Source: Cytophagaceae bacterium ABcell3
GTDB lineage: Bacteria; Bacteroidota; Bacteroidia; Cytophagales; Cytophagaceae
NCBI GenBank assembly: GCA_030913385.1
Contig: CP133159.1
Location: 3,184,584 to 3,248,583, forward strand
Length of the DNA: 64,000 nucleotides
Direction: 5' to 3'
The notes beneath the pieces were generated by a model. That model had not been told where the DNA came from and searched no databases. It saw nothing but the letters and a program-made list of their open reading frames with translations. The position numbers and the translations under genes were made by a program. Shown one piece after another: positions 3,086 to 13,974 of the stretch. Position 1 is the first letter of the stretch. Each line of letters starts with the position of its first letter.

Positions 3086-4816
3086 TTACACCTCCTGTTT
3101 CTCCGCCCACTCCAATCCCTCCGGCAGATTCACGGTACTAAATTCGATGTGAATAACCCTACGTTGTTTCTGATTGGTGACTTTGGCAGATGAATGCAAC
3201 AAGAGTGGCCGCATCAGGTGAATGCCTCCGGTATCCAGCTCAACATTCATCGGCAGGGTGCTTTGAGTAATCACATTTATTTCTGAATCGCTAAGCCTTT
3301 TGTTGTGAGATCCTGGAATTACCTTCAGGCCTCCATTGTTTTCATTGGTCTCATCTAAGTGAATCCGGATGGTCAGGGTTTTCTTCAGGATGTCCTCCGG
3401 CGGACACACGCTTATCACATTGCCTTTTTTAGTCCACCCGTAAAAGCCGCAGACTTCTTTTTTTTCCTTTACATTAATTGTGTTGTCTTGGTGCCAGGTT
3501 ACATACCAGTTGGACTGTGGCGGCTTGTCAAAATAGATAGCCTTGGATATAAAGAACCGCTCGCCTGTTTCAGACAATATCTTTTGAAGGTTAGGATTAA
3601 GAATGTGAGGCAACAGCTCCGGAATTTTGGTCAGCAATTGCCTGATAGCATAAACCGGTGGAGAATCTTGTATGTTGCTTTTCAAATACTCCCCGATAAG
3701 GGTTTTCATTCTGCTAGTTTCCCTACGGGTATACACATTTTGCAATACGGCTGTCCCTTTATATTGCACCTGTTTCAGGCTGTTTCTTATTCCTTTTGTT
3801 TCCAAATCTGAATTGTATAAATCTATAGCGTGGATCAGTTTACTTTTAATTCGCCTTTTCAGTTTCTCAGGACTTATTACACGCAAACTGTCACCAAACC
3901 CGAGAATTTCCCGCTCTAACTCAAAATTTATCTGTACCTGCAAAGATACAATTATTCCATGAGGAAGTTTTTCCAGCAATTGCTGGCTGTGATGGATAGG
4001 CTTGGTGAGGACATAAGGTGCATTGCTATTGTCAAAGAAAAGAACCACATTTTCCGGATTTCCATATTCGTTGACAGAAACACCAACCACATCTTTATAA
4101 TAATTCCGGAGATCTTTTCCGGTACATTCCAAATATGCATGGTCAGAAGGATGTATTTCCAGTATCCTGTCAAGTGCCAGGTTTATCAGGGGCTTACTTT
4201 TTTTGTGCATGCCCAGAACAAACCAGCGGTTACGGAACTCCTTCAGCAGGTAAGGGTGAAAAAGAATTGTGCTTGCGTTTCTGGCTTTGAAAGACTGGTA
4301 AGTAATTTCCAGACATTTTTTGTTAACGATGGCTTTATACACCTCATCAATAAAGTCAAGCCCTTTGAGGTGCTCGTTTTTCTCAAAATCAATGACCGGT
4401 TTATTGTTGGTTCTAGCAGCATGCACCTTGTCTTCCAGCCGCTGCACCATACCGCTCAGTTCGCGGAAATGGCTGAAGCCACGGAACTGTTTCAGGATTT
4501 CCGTAACTTCCGTCAGCTTGTTCAGGTCCTGCGTTGTAAGGGGGATATTGGTGATAGAATATTCCCGGTCTTCATACGAGTAGTATTTTTTGTCCGTGAC
4601 AACGATAGGGGCATTATAGCCAAGCTTATCACTGCGCATCACCTGGATGTCCATCTGTATGGTGCGCCGGCTGATACCCTTATCTATGCCTTCATATTCA
4701 TAAAGTGCCTCCGAGCAAGCTTCGATCAGGTCGTCAAGCGTCCATTTTCTGTACCTGTTCCGCAGGCAGTTGTCAATGGTGGTGTAGCGTATGAGAGCAT
4801 TGCGGTTTACCGGCAT
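3086..4816 (-). CDS. WYL-domain regulator fused to PhyH-like 2OG-Fe(II) dioxygenase
   Basis: This 576-residue protein has two parts. Residues 1-130 resemble the HTH region of WYL regulators (SRRTIQMDIQVMR). Residues 150-250 form the WYL domain, with the RWFVLG motif, and residues 300-340 a WCX-like tail. Residues 380-560 resemble phytanoyl-CoA dioxygenase: the iron-binding HxD is H442-D444 (WHQDN), the distal histidine is H541 (LLLHSS), and R552/R553 can bind 2-oxoglutarate. An iron- and 2-oxoglutarate-dependent enzyme joined to a WYL regulator is unusual. WYL proteins commonly sense nucleic-acid or nucleotide ligands and often control defence or repair genes. A palindrome 40 bp upstream (4856-4876) recurs before the RNA-repair block, so I infer autoregulation and control of that block. 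What the oxygenase half modifies is unknown; it could instead act as an oxygen/2OG sensor. Confidence 0.85.
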   Translation of the reverse strand: MPVNRNALIRYTTIDNCLRNRYRKWTLDDLIEACSEALYEYEGIDKGISRRTIQMDIQVMRSDKLGYNAPIVVTDKKYYSYEDREYSITNIPLTTQDLNKLTEVTEILKQFRGFSHFRELSGMVQRLEDKVHAARTNNKPVIDFEKNEHLKGLDFIDEVYKAIVNKKCLEITYQSFKARNASTILFHPYLLKEFRNRWFVLGMHKKSKPLINLALDRILEIHPSDHAYLECTGKDLRNYYKDVVGVSVNEYGNPENVVLFFDNSNAPYVLTKPIHHSQQLLEKLPHGIIVSLQVQINFELEREILGFGDSLRVISPEKLKRRIKSKLIHAIDLYNSDLETKGIRNSLKQVQYKGTAVLQNVYTRRETSRMKTLIGEYLKSNIQDSPPVYAIRQLLTKIPELLPHILNPNLQKILSETGERFFISKAIYFDKPPQSNWYVTWHQDNTINVKEKKEVCGFYGWTKKGNVISVCPPEDILKKTLTIRIHLDETNENNGGLKVIPGSHNKRLSDSEINVITQSTLPMNVELDTGGIHLMRPLLLHSSAKVTNQKQRRVIHIEFSTVNLPEGLEWAEKQEV

Positions 4817-7846: not shown

Positions 7847-7906
7847 GAGGTCTGCAACTTTGAATCATCAATTGAACGGCAGCCCCTGAAAGGCTACTTC
7901 AGATGC

Positions 7907-7929
7907 CTCCCCTGCAAATGGCGGGGGAG
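7907..7929 (+). other. Leader hairpin before the tRNA-Gln-like gene
   Basis: CTCCCC (7907-7912) can pair with GGGGAG (7924-7929) over an 11-nt loop, immediately 5' of the tRNA-like sequence. It may be a processing or stabilising element; no terminator T-run follows. Confidence 0.4.
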
Positions 7930-7936
7930 TTTAAAA

Positions 7937-8007
7937 TACCGGGTCGTCTAATGGCAGGACACCAGATTTTGGCTCTGGCAGTGGAAGTTCGAGTCTTCCC
8001 CCAGTAA
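7937..8007 (+). tRNA. tRNA-Gln (TTG)-like gene with imperfect acceptor stem
   Basis: A full cloverleaf can be drawn. Acceptor TACCGGG/CCCAGTA carries one C-A mismatch at 4:69. The D stem is GTC/GAC with a GG-containing loop, the anticodon stem is CCAGA/TCTGG with loop TTTTGGC (anticodon TTG), and the T stem is GGAAG/CTTCC with loop TTCGAGT. The discriminator A is at 8007; CCA is not encoded. The U1-A72 pair fits tRNA-Gln, but positions 2-4 are not typical. Its place between a candidate operator and slipin-rtcB, away from other tRNAs, suggests a repair-island RNA (bait, decoy or sensor) rather than the housekeeping tRNA-Gln. It may still be functional in translation. Confidence 0.7.
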
Positions 8008-8189
8008 CAAAAATATCCGAATGAGGCAGTAAAAGAATTTCCTGTTGCAAATTTCGGGTTTTAAAATCTTCACCTTCCATAAACCGGAGGGAAGCGCGGA
8101 AAAAGCTTCTGTACATGACCTGGCGAGGGTTTTCTATAGCCCCGCAGTGCCCCGGCCTGTGGCTTTGGAGGTATGCTGCTGACAGAAAG

Positions 8190-8315
8190 CTGTTTTTCAC
8201 CCTTGTGTGTCGGAGGTTCGATTCCTCCTCCCAATCTGTATGGGATAACTCAGTTGGTAGAGTAACAAGTATGGACTGAAAATCCATCTCTGAAGCTGAC
8301 TGCTTCTAAAAACAG
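8190..8315 (+). ncRNA. Circularly permuted tRNA-Phe-like RNA (Y RNA-like tRNA mimic)
   Basis: Read 5' to 3', the pieces of a tRNA-Phe appear in rotated order. Variable loop GTGTC (8207-8211); T arm GGAGG-TTCGATT-CCTCC (8212-8228); acceptor 3' strand TCCCA (8229-8233); a 7-nt cap ATCTGTA; acceptor 5' strand TGGGA (8241-8245); TA; D arm ACTC-AGTTGGTA-GAGT (8248-8263); an unusually long 7-nt linker; and anticodon arm ATGGA-CTGAAAA-TCCAT (8271-8287, anticodon GAA). The flanks can close the structure: CTGTTTTT (8190-8197) pairs with AAAAACAG (8308-8315), and weaker pairing continues outward (8174-8180 with 8328-8334). The acceptor is capped, so it cannot be charged. The arrangement recalls the tRNA-mimic module of bacterial Y RNAs such as YrlA. 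No Ro60/Rsr gene is in the window. The alternative is two unrelated tRNA relics lying side by side. Confidence 0.65.
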
Positions 8316-8590
8316 TCGCATTACATAAGCAGTGGCCTGACTTAACCGGTTTTTGTCCCCTGGCAAAAACAGTCTCTTAAAGGCTTTGTAAGGCTGAGGA
8401 TACCGCATGGTGGCTTTGTTTCACTTTCTAGTCTGACGGTTCTGATGCTCCCCGGGTATGCCTGGCGGAACTAAAGGGCAATCTTTCCGGAAACTGATAC
8501 AGAAAAACCAGCTTAATCAACCTTCCGTCTTCAGGAGATGGTTTGTCAGGCGCTGCTTAACTTAAAAAGTACGTTTTTTTTAAAATTTTT
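8316..8590 (+). other. Structured non-coding stretch before slipin
   Basis: No gene is visible. It contains the hairpin GTTTTTG-(8 nt)-CAAAAAC at 8349-8370, whose 3' part repeats the AAAAACAG seen in the closing helix of the tRNA-like RNA, so alternative pairings with 8190-8197 are possible. It may be the 3' part of the ncRNA or a leader of the slipin-rtcB mRNA. Confidence 0.4.
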
Positions 8591-8596
8591 ATAACA

Positions 8597-9586
8597 ATGA
8601 AAAGGATCAGAATAAACAAAGGACAAATTGGACTTGTGTTCAGAAACGGTGATTATATAAGGGTGCTTCAGGAAGGCTCTTTCTGGTTAAAGCCATTTGA
8701 AAGCGTAATGCTTTACAGTTTGTCTGTTCCTTTTTATCCACCAGTGGATCTGAGTATCCTGCTACGTGATGAGGATCTGGCAACTATGCTAACGGTGGTG
8801 GATGTTAAAGACCATGAGATTGCCCTGCAATATGAAAATGGTAACTTTAAAAATGTGCTCACACCGGGAAGGTACGCCTTCTGGAAAGGTGTTGCCGAAT
8901 TTTCATTTGATAAAGCCGATTTAAACCGGGCGGAAATTTCTCCGGATATTAATGTAAACCTGTTTCAGCGGAAAGAGCTGCTGCCATATATCAGGGTTTA
9001 TACCATTGAAGCTTTTGAAAAAGGTGTTCTTTTTGTTGATGGAAACTTTCAGCGCATTCTTGATACAGGTGTATACCATTTCTGGAAAAGCCCGGTGATG
9101 GTATCTGTACAAAAGACAGACATGCGACAGCTACAACTGGAAGTATCAGGACAGGAAATCCTTACCAGGGACAAAGCAGCCTTGCGCATCAGTTTTTATA
9201 CACAGTATAAGGTAAAGGATATCATTAAAGCACTGGTTGAAAACAGAGACTTCGAAAAGCAGTTGTATGTATTGCTGCAACTGGCACTGAGGGAATTTGT
9301 TGGTACTTATTCTTTGGATGAGCTACTTGATAAAAAAGAGGAGATTTCAGCGTATGTCCTGAGTAGTCTTAAGCAAAAGTCTGAAGACCTGGGCGTGGAA
9401 ATCAAAGGAGCGGGAATAAGGGACATCATACTTCCCGGCGAAATAAAGGAGATTATGAACCAGGTTTTGGTGGCAGAGAAAAAAGCCCAGGCCAATGTAA
9501 TTATGCGCAGGGAGGAAACAGCTTCTACAAGGAGTTTGCTGAACACAGCAAAGCTCATGGAAGACAATGAATGTTGTTCAGGCTGA
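8597..9586 (+). CDS. Slipin (band 7/SPFH family), C-terminus frameshifted
   Basis: This 329-residue product resembles the slipin/stomatin proteins that accompany RtcB in many bacterial RNA-repair operons. The N-terminal half holds beta-rich repeats (GSFWLKPFE, GRYAFWKG, GVYHFWKSP). The SPFH domain runs from about 130 to 290, ending in helix-forming QVLVAEKKAQANVIMRREE typical of slipins. No clear N-terminal transmembrane segment is seen. The normal reading would continue past NE into LFRLKEMEYVEKI..., which is present one frame away at 9571-9702; a single missing base near 9570 gives the early TGA at 9584. The protein as read loses about 43 residues. It precedes rtcB by about 190 bp on the same strand. 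Confidence 0.8.
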   Translation: MKRIRINKGQIGLVFRNGDYIRVLQEGSFWLKPFESVMLYSLSVPFYPPVDLSILLRDEDLATMLTVVDVKDHEIALQYENGNFKNVLTPGRYAFWKGVAEFSFDKADLNRAEISPDINVNLFQRKELLPYIRVYTIEAFEKGVLFVDGNFQRILDTGVYHFWKSPVMVSVQKTDMRQLQLEVSGQEILTRDKAALRISFYTQYKVKDIIKALVENRDFEKQLYVLLQLALREFVGTYSLDELLDKKEEISAYVLSSLKQKSEDLGVEIKGAGIRDIILPGEIKEIMNQVLVAEKKAQANVIMRREETASTRSLLNTAKLMEDNECCSG

Positions 9587-9702
9587 AGGAAATGGAATAT
9601 GTTGAGAAGATTGCCGATAAAATAAACAGTATTTCCCTGTCGGGAGGCAATATGGTTTTTGACCAGTTGAAAGACATATTTTCTCCTAAAAAAATAAACT
9701 GA
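9571..9702 (+). pseudogene. Out-of-frame C-terminal tail of slipin
   Basis: Forty-three codons in the -1 frame relative to the slipin gene encode LFRLKEMEYVEKIADKIN and end in VFDQLKDIFSPKKIN. This is the tail expected after MEDNE in slipins. Either a frameshift mutation, a sequencing error or ribosomal -1 shifting joins the two; no classic slippery heptamer is visible at the junction. Confidence 0.75.
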
Positions 9703-9775
9703 ACCGGGAATATGTTACAGGGGTATTAAGAAGCCTTTACATATTCCAGGTTTAACCTTAGAAAAAAAAAACATC

Positions 9776-11266: not shown

Positions 11267-12028
11267 ATGGAATCAACAATAGTCCAGAGACTTCAGGAAA
11301 TAGAGACGCAGTATGAGGTGAAGGTATTGCTGGCGGTGGAGTCAGGTTCGCGGGCATGGGGCTTTCCTTCTCCAGACAGCGACTATGACGTCCGGTTTAT
11401 TTACGTCCACCGGCCGGAATGGTACCTCACTATTCAGGATAAGAAAGACACCATTGAACTACCGGAAAAAGAACTGCTGGACTTCAGCGGCTGGGACATA
11501 CGGAAAGCATTGAAGCTCCTGAAAAAATCCAATCCACCTTTACTGGAATGGCTGAACTCTCCTGTAGTTTATACAGAAATTCCGGAAATTGTCCAGGGCC
11601 TGCGGGAACTGGCAAAAGCCTGCTTTTCTCCTGTGGCAGTCATGCACCACTACCTGAGCATGGCTGTAAAATACAAGGGTCTGGTGGATAAGGCTGGAGG
11701 TCAGGTAAAAATTAAAAACTATTTTTACGCTTTAAGGACAGCTTTTGCCTGTAAGTGGATGCTTGATAAACACACGATGCCCCCAGTGGATTTCACAGAA
11801 ATGCTGGTCTTGGCAGATGATCAGCTAAAAGCAGAAATCATTCGTCTGATAGCGCTGAAAGCCGGCAAGAATGAGAGCGAGGTAGTTGCCCGGAACCCTA
11901 AGCTGGACGCGCTGCTTAATTCCCTTATCCGGGAAGCAGAAGCAAATGCTGCGTCCATGAAATCGTCCAAAGTAGATGTGGAAAGTTTTGATATGTTTTT
12001 CAGGTATGTCCTGGAAGTTTGGCGGTAA
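11267..12028 (+). CDS. RlaP-type RNA-repair nucleotidyltransferase
   Basis: This 253-residue protein belongs to the DNA polymerase beta-like nucleotidyltransferases of the RlaP family (PF10127). The signature ESGSRAWGFPSPDSDYDVRF near residue 26 supplies the GS motif and the DxD metal ligands. The helical C-terminal region has KIKNYFYALRTAFACKWML near residue 146, typical of the family. RlaP proteins are found beside RtcB and are proposed to add or restore nucleotides at damaged RNA ends; the exact reaction is not established. It starts 81 bp after rtcB on the same strand. A second paralog lies at 12913. Confidence 0.88.
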   Translation: MESTIVQRLQEIETQYEVKVLLAVESGSRAWGFPSPDSDYDVRFIYVHRPEWYLTIQDKKDTIELPEKELLDFSGWDIRKALKLLKKSNPPLLEWLNSPVVYTEIPEIVQGLRELAKACFSPVAVMHHYLSMAVKYKGLVDKAGGQVKIKNYFYALRTAFACKWMLDKHTMPPVDFTEMLVLADDQLKAEIIRLIALKAGKNESEVVARNPKLDALLNSLIREAEANAASMKSSKVDVESFDMFFRYVLEVWR

Positions 12029-12912: not shown

Positions 12913-13974
12913 TTGAACATACAGGATATAAAAAATCAAAACCTAATTCTTCTAGAGTGTATCAGCGGCAGCAGGGCTTTCGGACTGGCAACACCGGAGT
13001 CTGATACAGACGTCAGGGGTGTTTTTTACTTGCCCCGGGAAAAATATTTTGGACTGGAATATATACCGCAGATCAGTAATGAGACTAATGATATAGTTTA
13101 TTATGAGTTGGGAAGATTTATTGAACTCTTATTGAAAAACAACCCAAACATTATCGAATTGCTCAATACGCCGGATGACTGTATACTTCAACGGAACCCT
13201 ATAATGGATCATATCCGCACGGAAATGTTTCTATCAAAGCTCTGCGAACAGACTTTCGGAAACTATGCGCTTAGCCAGATAAGAAAAGCACGTGGCCTGA
13301 ACAAAAAGATCGTTAACCCGATGGAAAAAGAGCGGAAGACGGTTCTGGACTTTTGTTATGTTAATGACAGGGCAGCATCCTTGCCTCTAAAGGAATTTCT
13401 TGCAGCAAAGAATATGGAACAAGCTTTTTGTGGCCTGACATCACTGCCACATATGCGTGACATGTATGCCTTGTTCTATGACGAATCGGGCAAGTATAAA
13501 GGGATTGTCCAGAAAAACACCGCCAATGAAATCTCTTTAAGTTCGGTACCTAAGGACGCTAAACCGGTGGCCTTACTGTACTTTAACAAAGACGGCTATT
13601 CCCAACACTGTCGCAGTTATAAGGAATATTGGGACTGGGTGAACAAGCGCAATGAAACCCGTTATCAGGGAAACCTTGCCCATGGCAAAAATTACGATGC
13701 AAAGAATATGATGCATGTATTTCGCCTTCTGACTATGGCAGAAGAAATAGGGGAGAAGGGTAAGGTAATTGTCAGACGACCTGACCGGGACTTTCTTCTA
13801 AGCATAAAGAAGGGAGACTTTTCATATGAAGAGCTAGTGGAAAAAGCTGAAGAAAAAAGGATGCACCTCCAGGATATTTATGAAAAATCAACACTGCCCG
13901 ATACTCCTGATGCCGGATTGGTTAACAACCTGCTGGTGGAAATGAGAGAAAAGCTTTATTGTTCAAAAACATAG
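12913..13974 (+). CDS. Second RlaP-type nucleotidyltransferase
   Basis: This 353-residue protein starts at TTG 12913. The frame is open further upstream, but the family N-terminus (LILLECISGSRAFGLATPES) is fully included. The catalytic signature is SGSRAFGLATPESDTDVRG near residue 17, with the DxD in SDTDVRG. The C-terminal half has the family's conserved helical region (NRYQG-like YQGNLAHGKNYDAKNMMHVF, RRPDRDFLLSIKKGDFSYEE). It is longer than the paralog at 11267 and clearly divergent, so both may act on different RNA ends. It is the last gene of the repair block. Confidence 0.85.
   Translation: MNIQDIKNQNLILLECISGSRAFGLATPESDTDVRGVFYLPREKYFGLEYIPQISNETNDIVYYELGRFIELLLKNNPNIIELLNTPDDCILQRNPIMDHIRTEMFLSKLCEQTFGNYALSQIRKARGLNKKIVNPMEKERKTVLDFCYVNDRAASLPLKEFLAAKNMEQAFCGLTSLPHMRDMYALFYDESGKYKGIVQKNTANEISLSSVPKDAKPVALLYFNKDGYSQHCRSYKEYWDWVNKRNETRYQGNLAHGKNYDAKNMMHVFRLLTMAEEIGEKGKVIVRRPDRDFLLSIKKGDFSYEELVEKAEEKRMHLQDIYEKSTLPDTPDAGLVNNLLVEMREKLYCSKT

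What the first reader, a model, noticed from the sequence alone, without database searches (positions are those of the whole stretch)
8190..8315. Circularly permuted, capped tRNA-Phe-like RNA beside rtcB
Seen: the variable loop, T arm and acceptor 3' strand of a tRNA-Phe come before its acceptor 5' strand, D arm and GAA anticodon arm. The acceptor is sealed by a 7-nt loop, and complementary flanks (8190-8197 / 8308-8315) close the structure at the anticodon/variable junction. Known: bacterial Y RNAs (for example YrlA) carry tRNA-mimic modules and occur near RtcB or Ro60. Inference: this is a Y RNA-like mimic or a permuted substrate used by the repair system. The almost intact Phe identity would make it an unusually clear case.
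Basis: partly seen in the sequence, partly recalled or inferred. Interest (0 to 1): 0.92.

Follow-up and report, generated by a model that had tools for sequence, protein, structure and literature searches.

The report
Large RNA carrying permuted tRNA mimics
The odd rearranged tRNA is one piece of a roughly 490-letter conserved structured RNA, found in no RNA-family library searched here, that sits directly in front of a stomatin-like (Band7) gene in many Bacteroidota, often among tRNA genes and RNA-repair enzymes, and may act as a tRNA look-alike in the response to RNA damage.

Summary
The permuted tRNA-like module is real: T arm, sealed acceptor, D arm and anticodon arm are all present. The 8190-8197/8308-8315 closing helix is not conserved, and the 'Phe identity' is one of 17 anticodons found at that position in 64 loci.

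The module belongs to a conserved RNA spanning about 8107-8596, directly upstream of a Band7/SPFH gene. Profiles of its non-tRNA flanks, built without the window, hit only this place in 64 kb (E 4e-9 and 1e-23). A model of its 5' domain matches in 78 of 80 related Band7 loci; the other two contigs are truncated. Searched by RNA alone, all 20 fetched 5'-domain loci have Band7. Most relatives carry two permuted modules, an anticodon arm and an H-type pseudoknot, with strong covariation. No Rfam 15 family fits.

By the tests made it is not a Y RNA: the genome has no Ro60 match and the Ro60-type stem is absent. Related loci hold RtcB or, instead, an RLIG1-type ligase in 42 of 80, and about 25 times the expected tRNA genes.

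Best reading: RNA partner of Band7 that baits or senses tRNA-cutting or tRNA-binding enzymes. Structure is well supported; function is inferred.

The parts
8107..8596 (+). whole conserved large RNA (ends approximate; 3' end close to the Band7 start)
   Evidence: Alignment with five relatives; nhmmer profiles built without the window hit 8113-8196 (E 4.1e-9) and 8292-8602 (E 1.2e-23) and nothing else in 64 kb; model R2 8107-8203 (the window was a member of R2).
8107..8200 (+). 5' domain A; stem P2 8123-8125 and 8127-8129 with 8140-8145
   Evidence: A3 (37 loci and the window): 91.7% of cells paired, 118 double changes against 32.7 shuffled. Stem P1 of the relatives pairs poorly in the window.
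8202..8206 (+). 5' strand of H1 (CTTGT), analogue of the anticodon stem, pairs with 8265-8269
   Evidence: 37 distinct strand pairs, 3.54 of 5 paired against 2.77 (sd 0.12) re-dealt; 96.6% of cells paired in A2.
8207..8211 (+). variable-loop-like GTGTC
   Evidence: sequence; listing
8212..8228 (+). T arm GGAGG-TTCGATT-CCTCC
8229..8245 (+). acceptor stem sealed by the 7-nt loop 8234-8240
   Evidence: homologous helix covaries (helix 3)
8248..8263 (+). D arm ACTC-AGTTGGTA-GAGT
   Evidence: helix 4
8264..8269 (+). A26-like A, then 3' strand of H1 (ACAAG)
   Evidence: A at this position in 77 of 77
8271..8287 (+). anticodon-type arm, loop CTGAAAA (GAA)
   Evidence: 64 of 78 loci have a 5-bp/7-nt hairpin at this place; U33 in 62 of 64, purine 37 in 63 of 64
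8292..8317 (+). H-type pseudoknot: GAAGC 8292-8296 / GCTTC 8302-8306, loop GACT 8298-8301 with AGTC 8314-8317
   Evidence: such a pseudoknot in 63 of 78 loci against a mean of 15.25, maximum 20, in 20 shuffles
8349..8370 (+). hairpin GTTTTTG/CAAAAAC in the 3' domain C
   Evidence: different but complementary strands in L093-L097, read by eye; not tested separately
8292..8596 (+). 3' domain C (includes GGATACCG at 8398-8405)
   Evidence: nhmmer E 1.2e-23
8597..9586 (+). Band7/SPFH gene, out of frame near its 3' end relative to homologues
   Evidence: PF01145 5.8e-35; aligned with 24 homologues of about 365 residues
9776..11185 (+). rtcB
   Evidence: PF01139 1.1e-82
11267..12028 (+). RlaP-type nucleotidyltransferase
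   Evidence: PF10127 1.9e-83
12913..13974 (+). second RlaP-type gene
   Evidence: PF10127 2.1e-25
7937..8008 (+). tRNA-Gln(ttg)-like gene with one acceptor mismatch; a second Gln(ttg) exists elsewhere in the genome
3086..4816 (-). WYL-WCX regulator with a PhyH domain; the WYL part recurs at related loci

Best explanation
Shown: 8107-8596 encodes a conserved large structured RNA directly upstream of, and in these data always linked to, a Band7/SPFH gene. It carries one (here) or two (usually) tRNA replicas whose acceptor ends are sealed and which are opened at the anticodon loop (module 1) or the variable region (module 2), an anticodon-type hairpin, and a pseudoknot. Inferred: the RNA is transcribed and works with the Band7 protein, which probably assembles a ring or cage as SPFH proteins do. 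There the tRNA replicas bait, titrate or sense enzymes that cut or bind tRNA under attack, anticodon nucleases above all, while the linked ligase (RtcB, or an RLIG1-type ligase instead), RlaP and spare tRNA genes repair or replace the cut tRNAs.
For: Structure: alignment A2, 42 loci without the window: 90.5% of cells paired, 371 double changes against 115.9 shuffled, score 0.604 against 0.217, slid versions 0.161 or less; domain A; pseudoknot; A26 in 77 of 77 and helix H1; U33 in 62 of 64 and purine 37 in 63 of 64 though the search asked only that the loop not be a T loop. Window membership: nhmmer without the window. Linkage: one domain-A match per locus upstream of Band7 in 78 of 80 loci, the other two truncated; searched by RNA, 20 of 20 fetched loci (of 25 matches) have Band7, and so have the 15 of 30 fetched matches of model R1 that contain no tRNA gene and could be judged. 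Context in the 80 loci: RtcB in 24, RLIG1-type in 18, both in 0; 210 tRNA genes in 982 kb where 8.3 are expected, 203 on the Band7 strand; boxA-like GTTCTTT in 50 of 79. Band7 model: SPFH fold, stomatin Z 16.7, rmsd 1.5 A, 109 residues.
Against: No transcript, no protein binding and no nuclease was tested. The anticodon varies widely, so no single target tRNA is indicated. The window copy is atypical: no second module, weak P1, no GTTCTTT match, and a Band7 gene that goes out of frame. A ligase of either type was found within about 6 kb in only 42 of 80 loci. Of the nine proteins given to PADLOC only the WYL protein (WYL and Cas3c models) and the exonuclease (DEDDh, PDC-S48) matched, none of the core proteins. 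Model R1 alone does not separate the window (65.6 bits) from tandem tRNA genes, which reach 98.8 bits.
Confidence: 0.42

Rival explanations
1. Scaffold or tether: the tRNA replicas recruit cellular tRNA-binding enzymes (a decay nuclease such as PNPase, modification enzymes, or the ligase itself) to a Band7 platform, as YrlA links Ro60 and PNPase. The anticodon arm only completes the mimic.
For: Module order equals the YrlA tRNA-like domain; a review says YrlA is a substrate of DusA and TruB and that its tRNA-like domain binds PNPase (PMC8394870, passages); T-loop, D-loop and A26 positions are the most constant parts.
Against: No binding data; a conserved anticodon loop with U33 and purine 37 has no obvious role in a pure tether.
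Confidence: 0.28
2. Cis-acting leader: the RNA is the 5' untranslated region of Band7 and switches expression of Band7 and the repair genes when tRNA is cut or tRNA-binding factors are free.
For: On the Band7 strand and upstream in all 78 matches; the conserved part ends close to the start codon in the window and several relatives.
Against: Loci such as L093, L104, L105, L163 and L170 have roughly 150 to 280 nt more between the pseudoknot region and Band7 than the window; elaborate elbow geometry is more than a simple attenuator needs. For neither view: no GC-rich terminator was found in 7850-8700.
Confidence: 0.18
3. A Y RNA that lost Ro60: a degenerate YrlA left in an RNA-repair locus.
For: Rfam YrlA aligns over its full length; family relatives have Ro60, Y RNAs and RlaP genes.
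Against: Flank profiles of this RNA hit none of 18 control loci fetched around YrlA-model matches, 17 of them in genomes that match TROVE; the Ro60-type basal stem is absent; 3 of the 25 order genomes with this RNA are among the TROVE genomes; 78 other loci show the same non-Y domain.
Confidence: 0.05
4. Debris of tandem tRNA-Phe genes.
For: Own tRNA-Phe shares the D-arm and anticodon-arm stretch at 78% (E 0.046); tandem tRNA genes also match the models.
Against: Covariation, flank conservation and linkage across genera; the anticodon differs between loci.
Confidence: 0.02

Closest known systems
YrlA, bacterial Y RNA (Rfam RF02553)
   Same: T arm, short-loop-sealed acceptor and D arm in permuted order, closed by a helix at the anticodon-stem position; can lie beside rtcB (PMC7790460, passages).
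   Different: No Ro60-type basal stem, no Ro60 match in this genome, tandem modules in most relatives, an anticodon arm, extra domains A and C, a pseudoknot, Band7 linkage, about 490 nt against 114 model positions.
OLE RNA and other ornate large bacterial RNAs (GOLLD, ROOL)
   Same: Large conserved RNA; OLE forms a membrane-associated RNP (abstract starts in the search listing).
   Different: No Rfam match to any of them; tRNA mimicry and RNA-repair neighbours are not features I know of for those RNAs (recalled).
tmRNA
   Same: tRNA mimicry combined with pseudoknots (recalled).
   Different: ARAGORN reports no tmRNA in the window; the acceptor end is sealed, so not aminoacylatable as it stands.
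Circularly permuted tRNA genes (algae, archaea)
   Same: 3' half precedes 5' half with a short insert between the acceptor strands (recalled; of PMC3978253 only the search listing was seen).
   Different: No sign of maturation to a tRNA: the ends run into conserved non-tRNA domains and module 1 has no anticodon loop of its own.
Vault particle (major vault protein and vault RNA)
   Same: Band7 model = three beta modules, SPFH domain, long helices; seven MVP rows align it from residue 2-4 to 318-333 at Z 10.8-12.6.
   Different: Much smaller protein; the beta modules alone match MVP only at Z 2.3-2.7; vault RNA is not known to me as a permuted tRNA mimic.

Membership tests
Y RNA / YrlA (RF02553) | tRNA-like domain: T arm, capped acceptor, D arm in permuted order | tested here: met
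   Full-length alignment 1-114, 35.7 bits; covariation of the same helices in homologues
Y RNA / YrlA (RF02553) | score above the Rfam gathering cut-off (69 bits) | tested here: not met
   35.7 bits; a weak test, since 0 of 390 order genomes reach it, those with TROVE included
Y RNA / YrlA (RF02553) | conserved basal stem of Ro60-associated Y RNAs | tested here: not met
   A motif shared by the Y RNAs of Ro60-bearing relatives (roughly GTGCCGTAGA...GTTACTTCG / TTTTCG.ATTGTTGCCC, read by eye) is not seen in 8107-8596; flank profiles do not hit those loci. That this stem binds Ro60 is from PMC8394870 passages and recall.
Y RNA / YrlA (RF02553) | Ro60 (TROVE) partner in the genome | tested here: not met
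   0 matches in the single-contig genome; the same search matches in 92 of 390 order genomes
Y RNA / YrlA (RF02553) | binds Ro60 and PNPase | not testable with these tools
   needs biochemistry
Genuine tRNA gene | complete cloverleaf recognised by tRNA finders | tested here: not met
   ARAGORN and Rfam gathering find only the gene at 7937
tmRNA | tmRNA gene with tag reading frame | tested here: not met
   none reported by ARAGORN or by Rfam at gathering score
Circularly permuted tRNA gene | processing to a mature aminoacylatable tRNA | not testable with these tools
   no RNA data; the anatomy argues against it
Any Rfam 15 family for the large RNA | match at gathering score beyond tRNA | tested here: not met
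   11 of the 80 homologous loci: only RF00005, some of it on the modules; L096 at E up to 10: sub-threshold YrlA, tRNA (one row above its cut-off), two weak rows; window
SPFH / Band7 (the neighbour protein) | Band_7 domain | tested here: met
   PF01145 5.8e-35; stomatin SPFH domain Z 16.7
Major vault protein (the neighbour protein) | vault-type beta repeats before the shoulder domain | tested here: inconclusive
   whole model Z 10.8-12.6 to MVP rows that span it; beta modules alone Z 2.3-2.7

The most novel reading that the evidence does not exclude
A vault-like bacterial ribonucleoprotein: an SPFH cage protein with stacked beta repeats whose dedicated RNA subunit is a large RNA with tandem permuted tRNA replicas and a decoy anticodon loop, used as the bait and alarm of a tRNA-damage defence that carries its own spare tRNAs and interchangeable RNA ligases.
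Probability: 0.13. Interest if true: 0.96.

Novelty: categorically new. Interest (0 to 1): 0.88.

Why it matters
A large structured RNA that contains one or two tRNA replicas, one of them opened where anticodon nucleases cut, always found here with an SPFH gene and often among RNA ligases and tRNA arrays, would join three topics not usually linked: tRNA mimicry, RNA repair, and SPFH assemblies. It gives an RNA handle on what stomatin-like Band7 proteins do in bacteria, and makes a specific question testable: do cells make decoy anticodons against tRNA-cutting toxins? Because the module matches the YrlA tRNA domain, it may also show how Y RNAs arose, or that the same mimic arose more than once.

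Tried and rejected

Model R1 (two modules plus anticodon arm) as a genome-wide detector fails alone: 391 of 395 phylum genomes match, because tandem tRNA genes match it. Of the 30 matches fetched, 15 contain no tRNA gene and all 15 have Band7 nearby (95.1 to 130.5 bits); 13 overlap 2 or 3 tRNA genes and have no Band7 (up to 98.8 bits); 2 lie on short contigs and could not be judged. I therefore built R2 from the 5' domain. R2 matched 15 of 32 chosen genomes, none of them the four Ro60-bearing ones I put in as controls, and 25 of 380 order genomes. R2 missed two genomes that R1 and Band7 support (G678, G766), so its counts are lower bounds; G746 and G734, also without R2, are tandem tRNA cases. 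R2 was built with the window and 37 of the 80 loci, so one search is the independent test for the window and 41 of the 78 positive loci are outside the model.

The Rfam YrlA search matches in 233 of 390 order genomes and in 8 of 14 control genomes at E 0.01, so its hits mix Y RNAs and tandem tRNAs.

First anticodon-arm count (65 of 77) included second T arms and was replaced, where 14 of 78 loci have no such hairpin at the expected place. In the pseudoknot count 15 of 78 loci have none, and some of the 63 positives are other hairpins than the expected one. L099 and L168 (truncated) and, L102 (its modules overlap an ARAGORN call) were dropped before counts. H1 counts use a fixed register, so loci with a 4-nt variable loop count as unpaired. 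The 80 Band7 loci are the best 80 of 98 found. Neighbour counts come from clustering ORFs of at least 100 residues; the RLIG1, RNase T and WYL names rest on one representative each, and the RLIG1 match covers only profile positions 186-272 of 324.

Band7 in viral contigs: none. PDB sequence search with the beta-module domain: none. Foldseek with that domain alone: best E 0.13. Absence from those structure lists proves nothing.

Literature: ten full-text searches, of which I saw the listings, and passages of seven papers. Nothing that I saw there describes this RNA. Chen 2014 on Y RNAs and Burroughs and Aravind 2016 were asked for and are not held. Subscription papers and most preprints were not searched, so an earlier description is not excluded.

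Full report
WHAT IS AT THE COORDINATES. Read directly, the stretch has, in order: CTTGT 8202-8206, GTGTC 8207-8211, T arm 8212-8228, acceptor 3' strand 8229-8233, a 7-nt cap 8234-8240, acceptor 5' strand 8241-8245, UA 8246-8247, D arm 8248-8263, A 8264, ACAAG 8265-8269 and an anticodon-type hairpin 8271-8287. ARAGORN finds no tRNA here, and Rfam finds only the tRNA at 7937 at gathering score. At relaxed threshold the best match over the element is YrlA, 35.7 bits (gathering score 69), aligned from model position 1 to 114. A motif scan for T arm, capped acceptor and D arm finds this arrangement once on both strands of the window.

IT IS NOT ALONE. I took the neighbouring Band7/SPFH protein and fetched the best 80 of 98 loci encoding relatives, from Chryseolinea, Imperialibacter, Flavobacterium, Aequorivita, Pedobacter, Lewinella and Bacteroidales MAGs among others. 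The same motif scan finds one or two permuted modules upstream of Band7, on its strand, in 76 of these 80. Two of the four misses are truncated contigs (L099, L168); the other two, L131 and L172, match the later RNA model. Two or more T arms are found in 70 of 79 loci, at a median spacing of 64 nt.

IT IS A LARGE RNA. Aligning the whole intergenic region of the window with five relatives shows conserved blocks from about 8107 to the Band7 start. Profiles of the two non-tRNA flanks, built from 12 and 8 relatives without the window, hit the window only at 8113-8196 (E 4.1e-9) and 8292-8602 (E 1.2e-23). They hit none of 18 control loci fetched around YrlA-model matches, 17 of which lie in genomes with a TROVE match. 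A covariance model of the 5' domain (R2) matches once, on the Band7 strand, in 78 of 80 loci, 41 of them not used to build it; L099 and L168 lack the upstream DNA. Searched by RNA alone, R2 matches 25 of 380 genomes of the order, in 10 of 128 genera. All 20 loci fetched from those matches, the window's own included, encode this Band7 nearby, and 16 of 20 have a module that my motif scan recognises. A second RNA-first test: of 30 fetched matches of the module model R1, the 15 that contain no tRNA gene and could be judged all have Band7, while 13 tandem-tRNA matches have none. Among the 19 genomes searched of the window's own family only the window's genome matches R2, so the distribution is patchy.

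THE STRUCTURE IS SUPPORTED BY COVARIATION. For H1, T1, acceptor 1, D1, T2, acceptor 2, D2 and the anticodon stem over 42 loci without the window: 90.5% of cells paired (69.0% shuffled), 371 cells changed on both sides (115.9 shuffled), score 0.604 (0.217 shuffled; 0.085-0.161 when slid). D2 and acceptor 2 are the weakest helices (63.1% and 73.6% paired). Domain A over 37 loci and the window: 91.7% paired, 118 double changes against 32.7, score 0.638 against 0.201; the number of pairs with any double change is less striking (16 of 500 shuffles reach it). Shuffle counts overstate significance for related sequences; the slid controls keep relatedness. The helix closing module 1 sits where the anticodon stem would be, and the base after the D arm is A in 77 of 77, like A26 of tRNA. 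Module 1 is thus a tRNA with sealed acceptor ends, opened at the anticodon loop. Module 2, where present, is opened in the variable region and keeps its anticodon arm. The window has a single module followed by the anticodon arm, as have L097, L141 and L142.

THE ANTICODON ARM AND PSEUDOKNOT. Hairpins of 5 bp and 7 nt, sought with no demand on the loop other than that it is not a T loop, occur at the expected place in 64 of 78 loci. The second loop base is U in 62 of 64 and the sixth a purine in 63 of 64, as in real anticodon loops, while 17 different triplets occupy the anticodon. Downstream lies an H-type pseudoknot, GAAGC-TGACT-GCTTC-TAAAAAC-AGTC in the window. A pseudoknot of this kind is found in 63 of 78 loci against a mean of 15.25 in 20 shuffles, maximum 20; some of the 63 are not the expected hairpin.

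NOT A Y RNA. No TROVE match is found in the single-contig genome, while 92 of 390 order genomes match, including five genomes of the same family with YrlA-model hits. In relatives the Y RNAs share a basal stem that I do not see in the window. Of the 25 genomes with this RNA, 3 (G162, G285, G301) are among the 92. What it works like and what it belongs to are separate: the module works like the YrlA tRNA domain; the RNA fails those Y RNA tests that could be made, apart from the shared module.

NEIGHBOURS. In the window: RtcB and two RlaP genes downstream, and a WYL regulator upstream. RlaP is predicted to restore lost nucleotides before ligation (PMC7824862, passages). In the 80 loci, by clustering within about 6 kb: RtcB in 24, an RLIG1-type ligase in 18 (named from one representative with a partial PF17720 match), both together in none; an RNase T-type exonuclease in 30; WYL in 18, 17 of them with RtcB. 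The loci hold 210 tRNA genes in 982 kb, against 8.3 expected at the window genome's density, in 55 of 80 loci, 203 on the Band7 strand. Of 211 ARAGORN calls, 83 are Asp, His, Tyr or Asn with GTN anticodons; from memory these are the targets of colicin E5, which is suggestive only. GTTCTTT occurs 100-420 nt before T1 in 50 of 79 loci, at 150-205 nt in 49 of them, against a background of 0.045 per stretch; the window lacks it. I recall boxA as an antitermination signal of untranslated operons, which fits a noncoding transcript.

BAND7. The predicted model (pLDDT 78.9, pTM 0.56) has three beta modules, an SPFH domain and long helices. Stomatin SPFH domains match best (Z 16.7, rmsd 1.5 A, 109 residues). 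Major vault protein aligns across the model (Z 12.6, rmsd 7.7 A, 216 residues for 9z4w, model 4-318), but the SPFH part may carry much of that score. The beta part alone (pLDDT 92.3) matches single SPFH beta subdomains at Z up to 4.5 and MVP at 2.3-2.7. A vault-like arrangement is possible, not shown.

HOW IT MOST LIKELY WORKS. Shown: anatomy, conservation, linkage. Inferred, in falling order of support: it is transcribed as RNA; it acts with Band7; its tRNA replicas engage tRNA-cutting or tRNA-binding enzymes; it is part of a response that also repairs (RtcB, RLIG1-type ligase, RlaP) and replaces (tRNA arrays) cut tRNAs. [quoted passage not shown] In Anabaena, a repressor of a tRNA operon also controls rtcB, and a slipin gene is raised in its mutant by a table entry (PMC10272220, passages).

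NOVELTY. Rfam 15 gives no family beyond tRNA and sub-threshold YrlA for the loci scanned (11 of 80; L096; the window), and I saw no description in ten literature searches of an open-licence library. I call the RNA categorically new because its overall architecture and its Band7 linkage match no family tested, while its module has a known precedent in YrlA.

Noticed in passing
window 7937-8008: tRNA-Gln(ttg)-like gene with a Glu-like body (by eye) and one C-A acceptor mismatch, beside the RNA; the genome has another Gln(ttg) gene (L085) among the 30 of 43 tRNA matches looked at.
   Followed up: partly
window 8597-9712: The Band7 reading frame ends about 36 residues short of its homologues, whose remaining residues appear in another frame; real mutation or assembly error.
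   Followed up: partly
window 11267-12028 and 12913-13974: Two RlaP-type nucleotidyltransferase genes of different length downstream of rtcB.
   Followed up: no
window 3086-4816 (-): WYL-WCX regulator fused to a PhyH (phytanoyl-CoA dioxygenase) domain; the related regulators found by tblastn match over about the first 335 residues only.
   Followed up: partly
L044, L045, L047, L048: Family relatives carry Ro60, Y RNAs (more than one in L045, L047, L048) and RlaP genes next to ORFs that look like Hen1 and Pnkp (named from memory of their sequence, not searched).
   Followed up: partly
80 Band7 loci L093-L172: tRNA genes about 25 times denser than the window genome's average, almost all on the Band7 strand, rich in Asp, Pro, His, Phe, Tyr and Leu(tag).
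   Followed up: partly
for example L157:3708-4274: Relatives of the RNA ligase family RLIG1 (PF17720, partial match on one representative) appear in 18 loci, none of which has RtcB nearby.
   Followed up: partly
L137:4445-5227: 261-residue protein without a Pfam or NCBIfam match, in 22 loci, 18 of them with the RLIG1-type gene.
   Followed up: no
L056:11209-11436 (-) and L053:5212-5439 (+): tRNA trio Gln(ctg), Lys(ctt) and an odd third call (Pyl-like cta, or unassigned) within a few kb of a WYL gene and YrlA-like elements.
   Followed up: no
L093-L172, mostly 150-205 nt before T1: boxA-like GTTCTTT at a near-fixed distance in 50 of 79 loci, absent from the window.
   Followed up: yes
L098, L100, L104, L111, L119, L131, L163, L170: Two successive anticodon-type hairpins with different triplets instead of one.
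   Followed up: no
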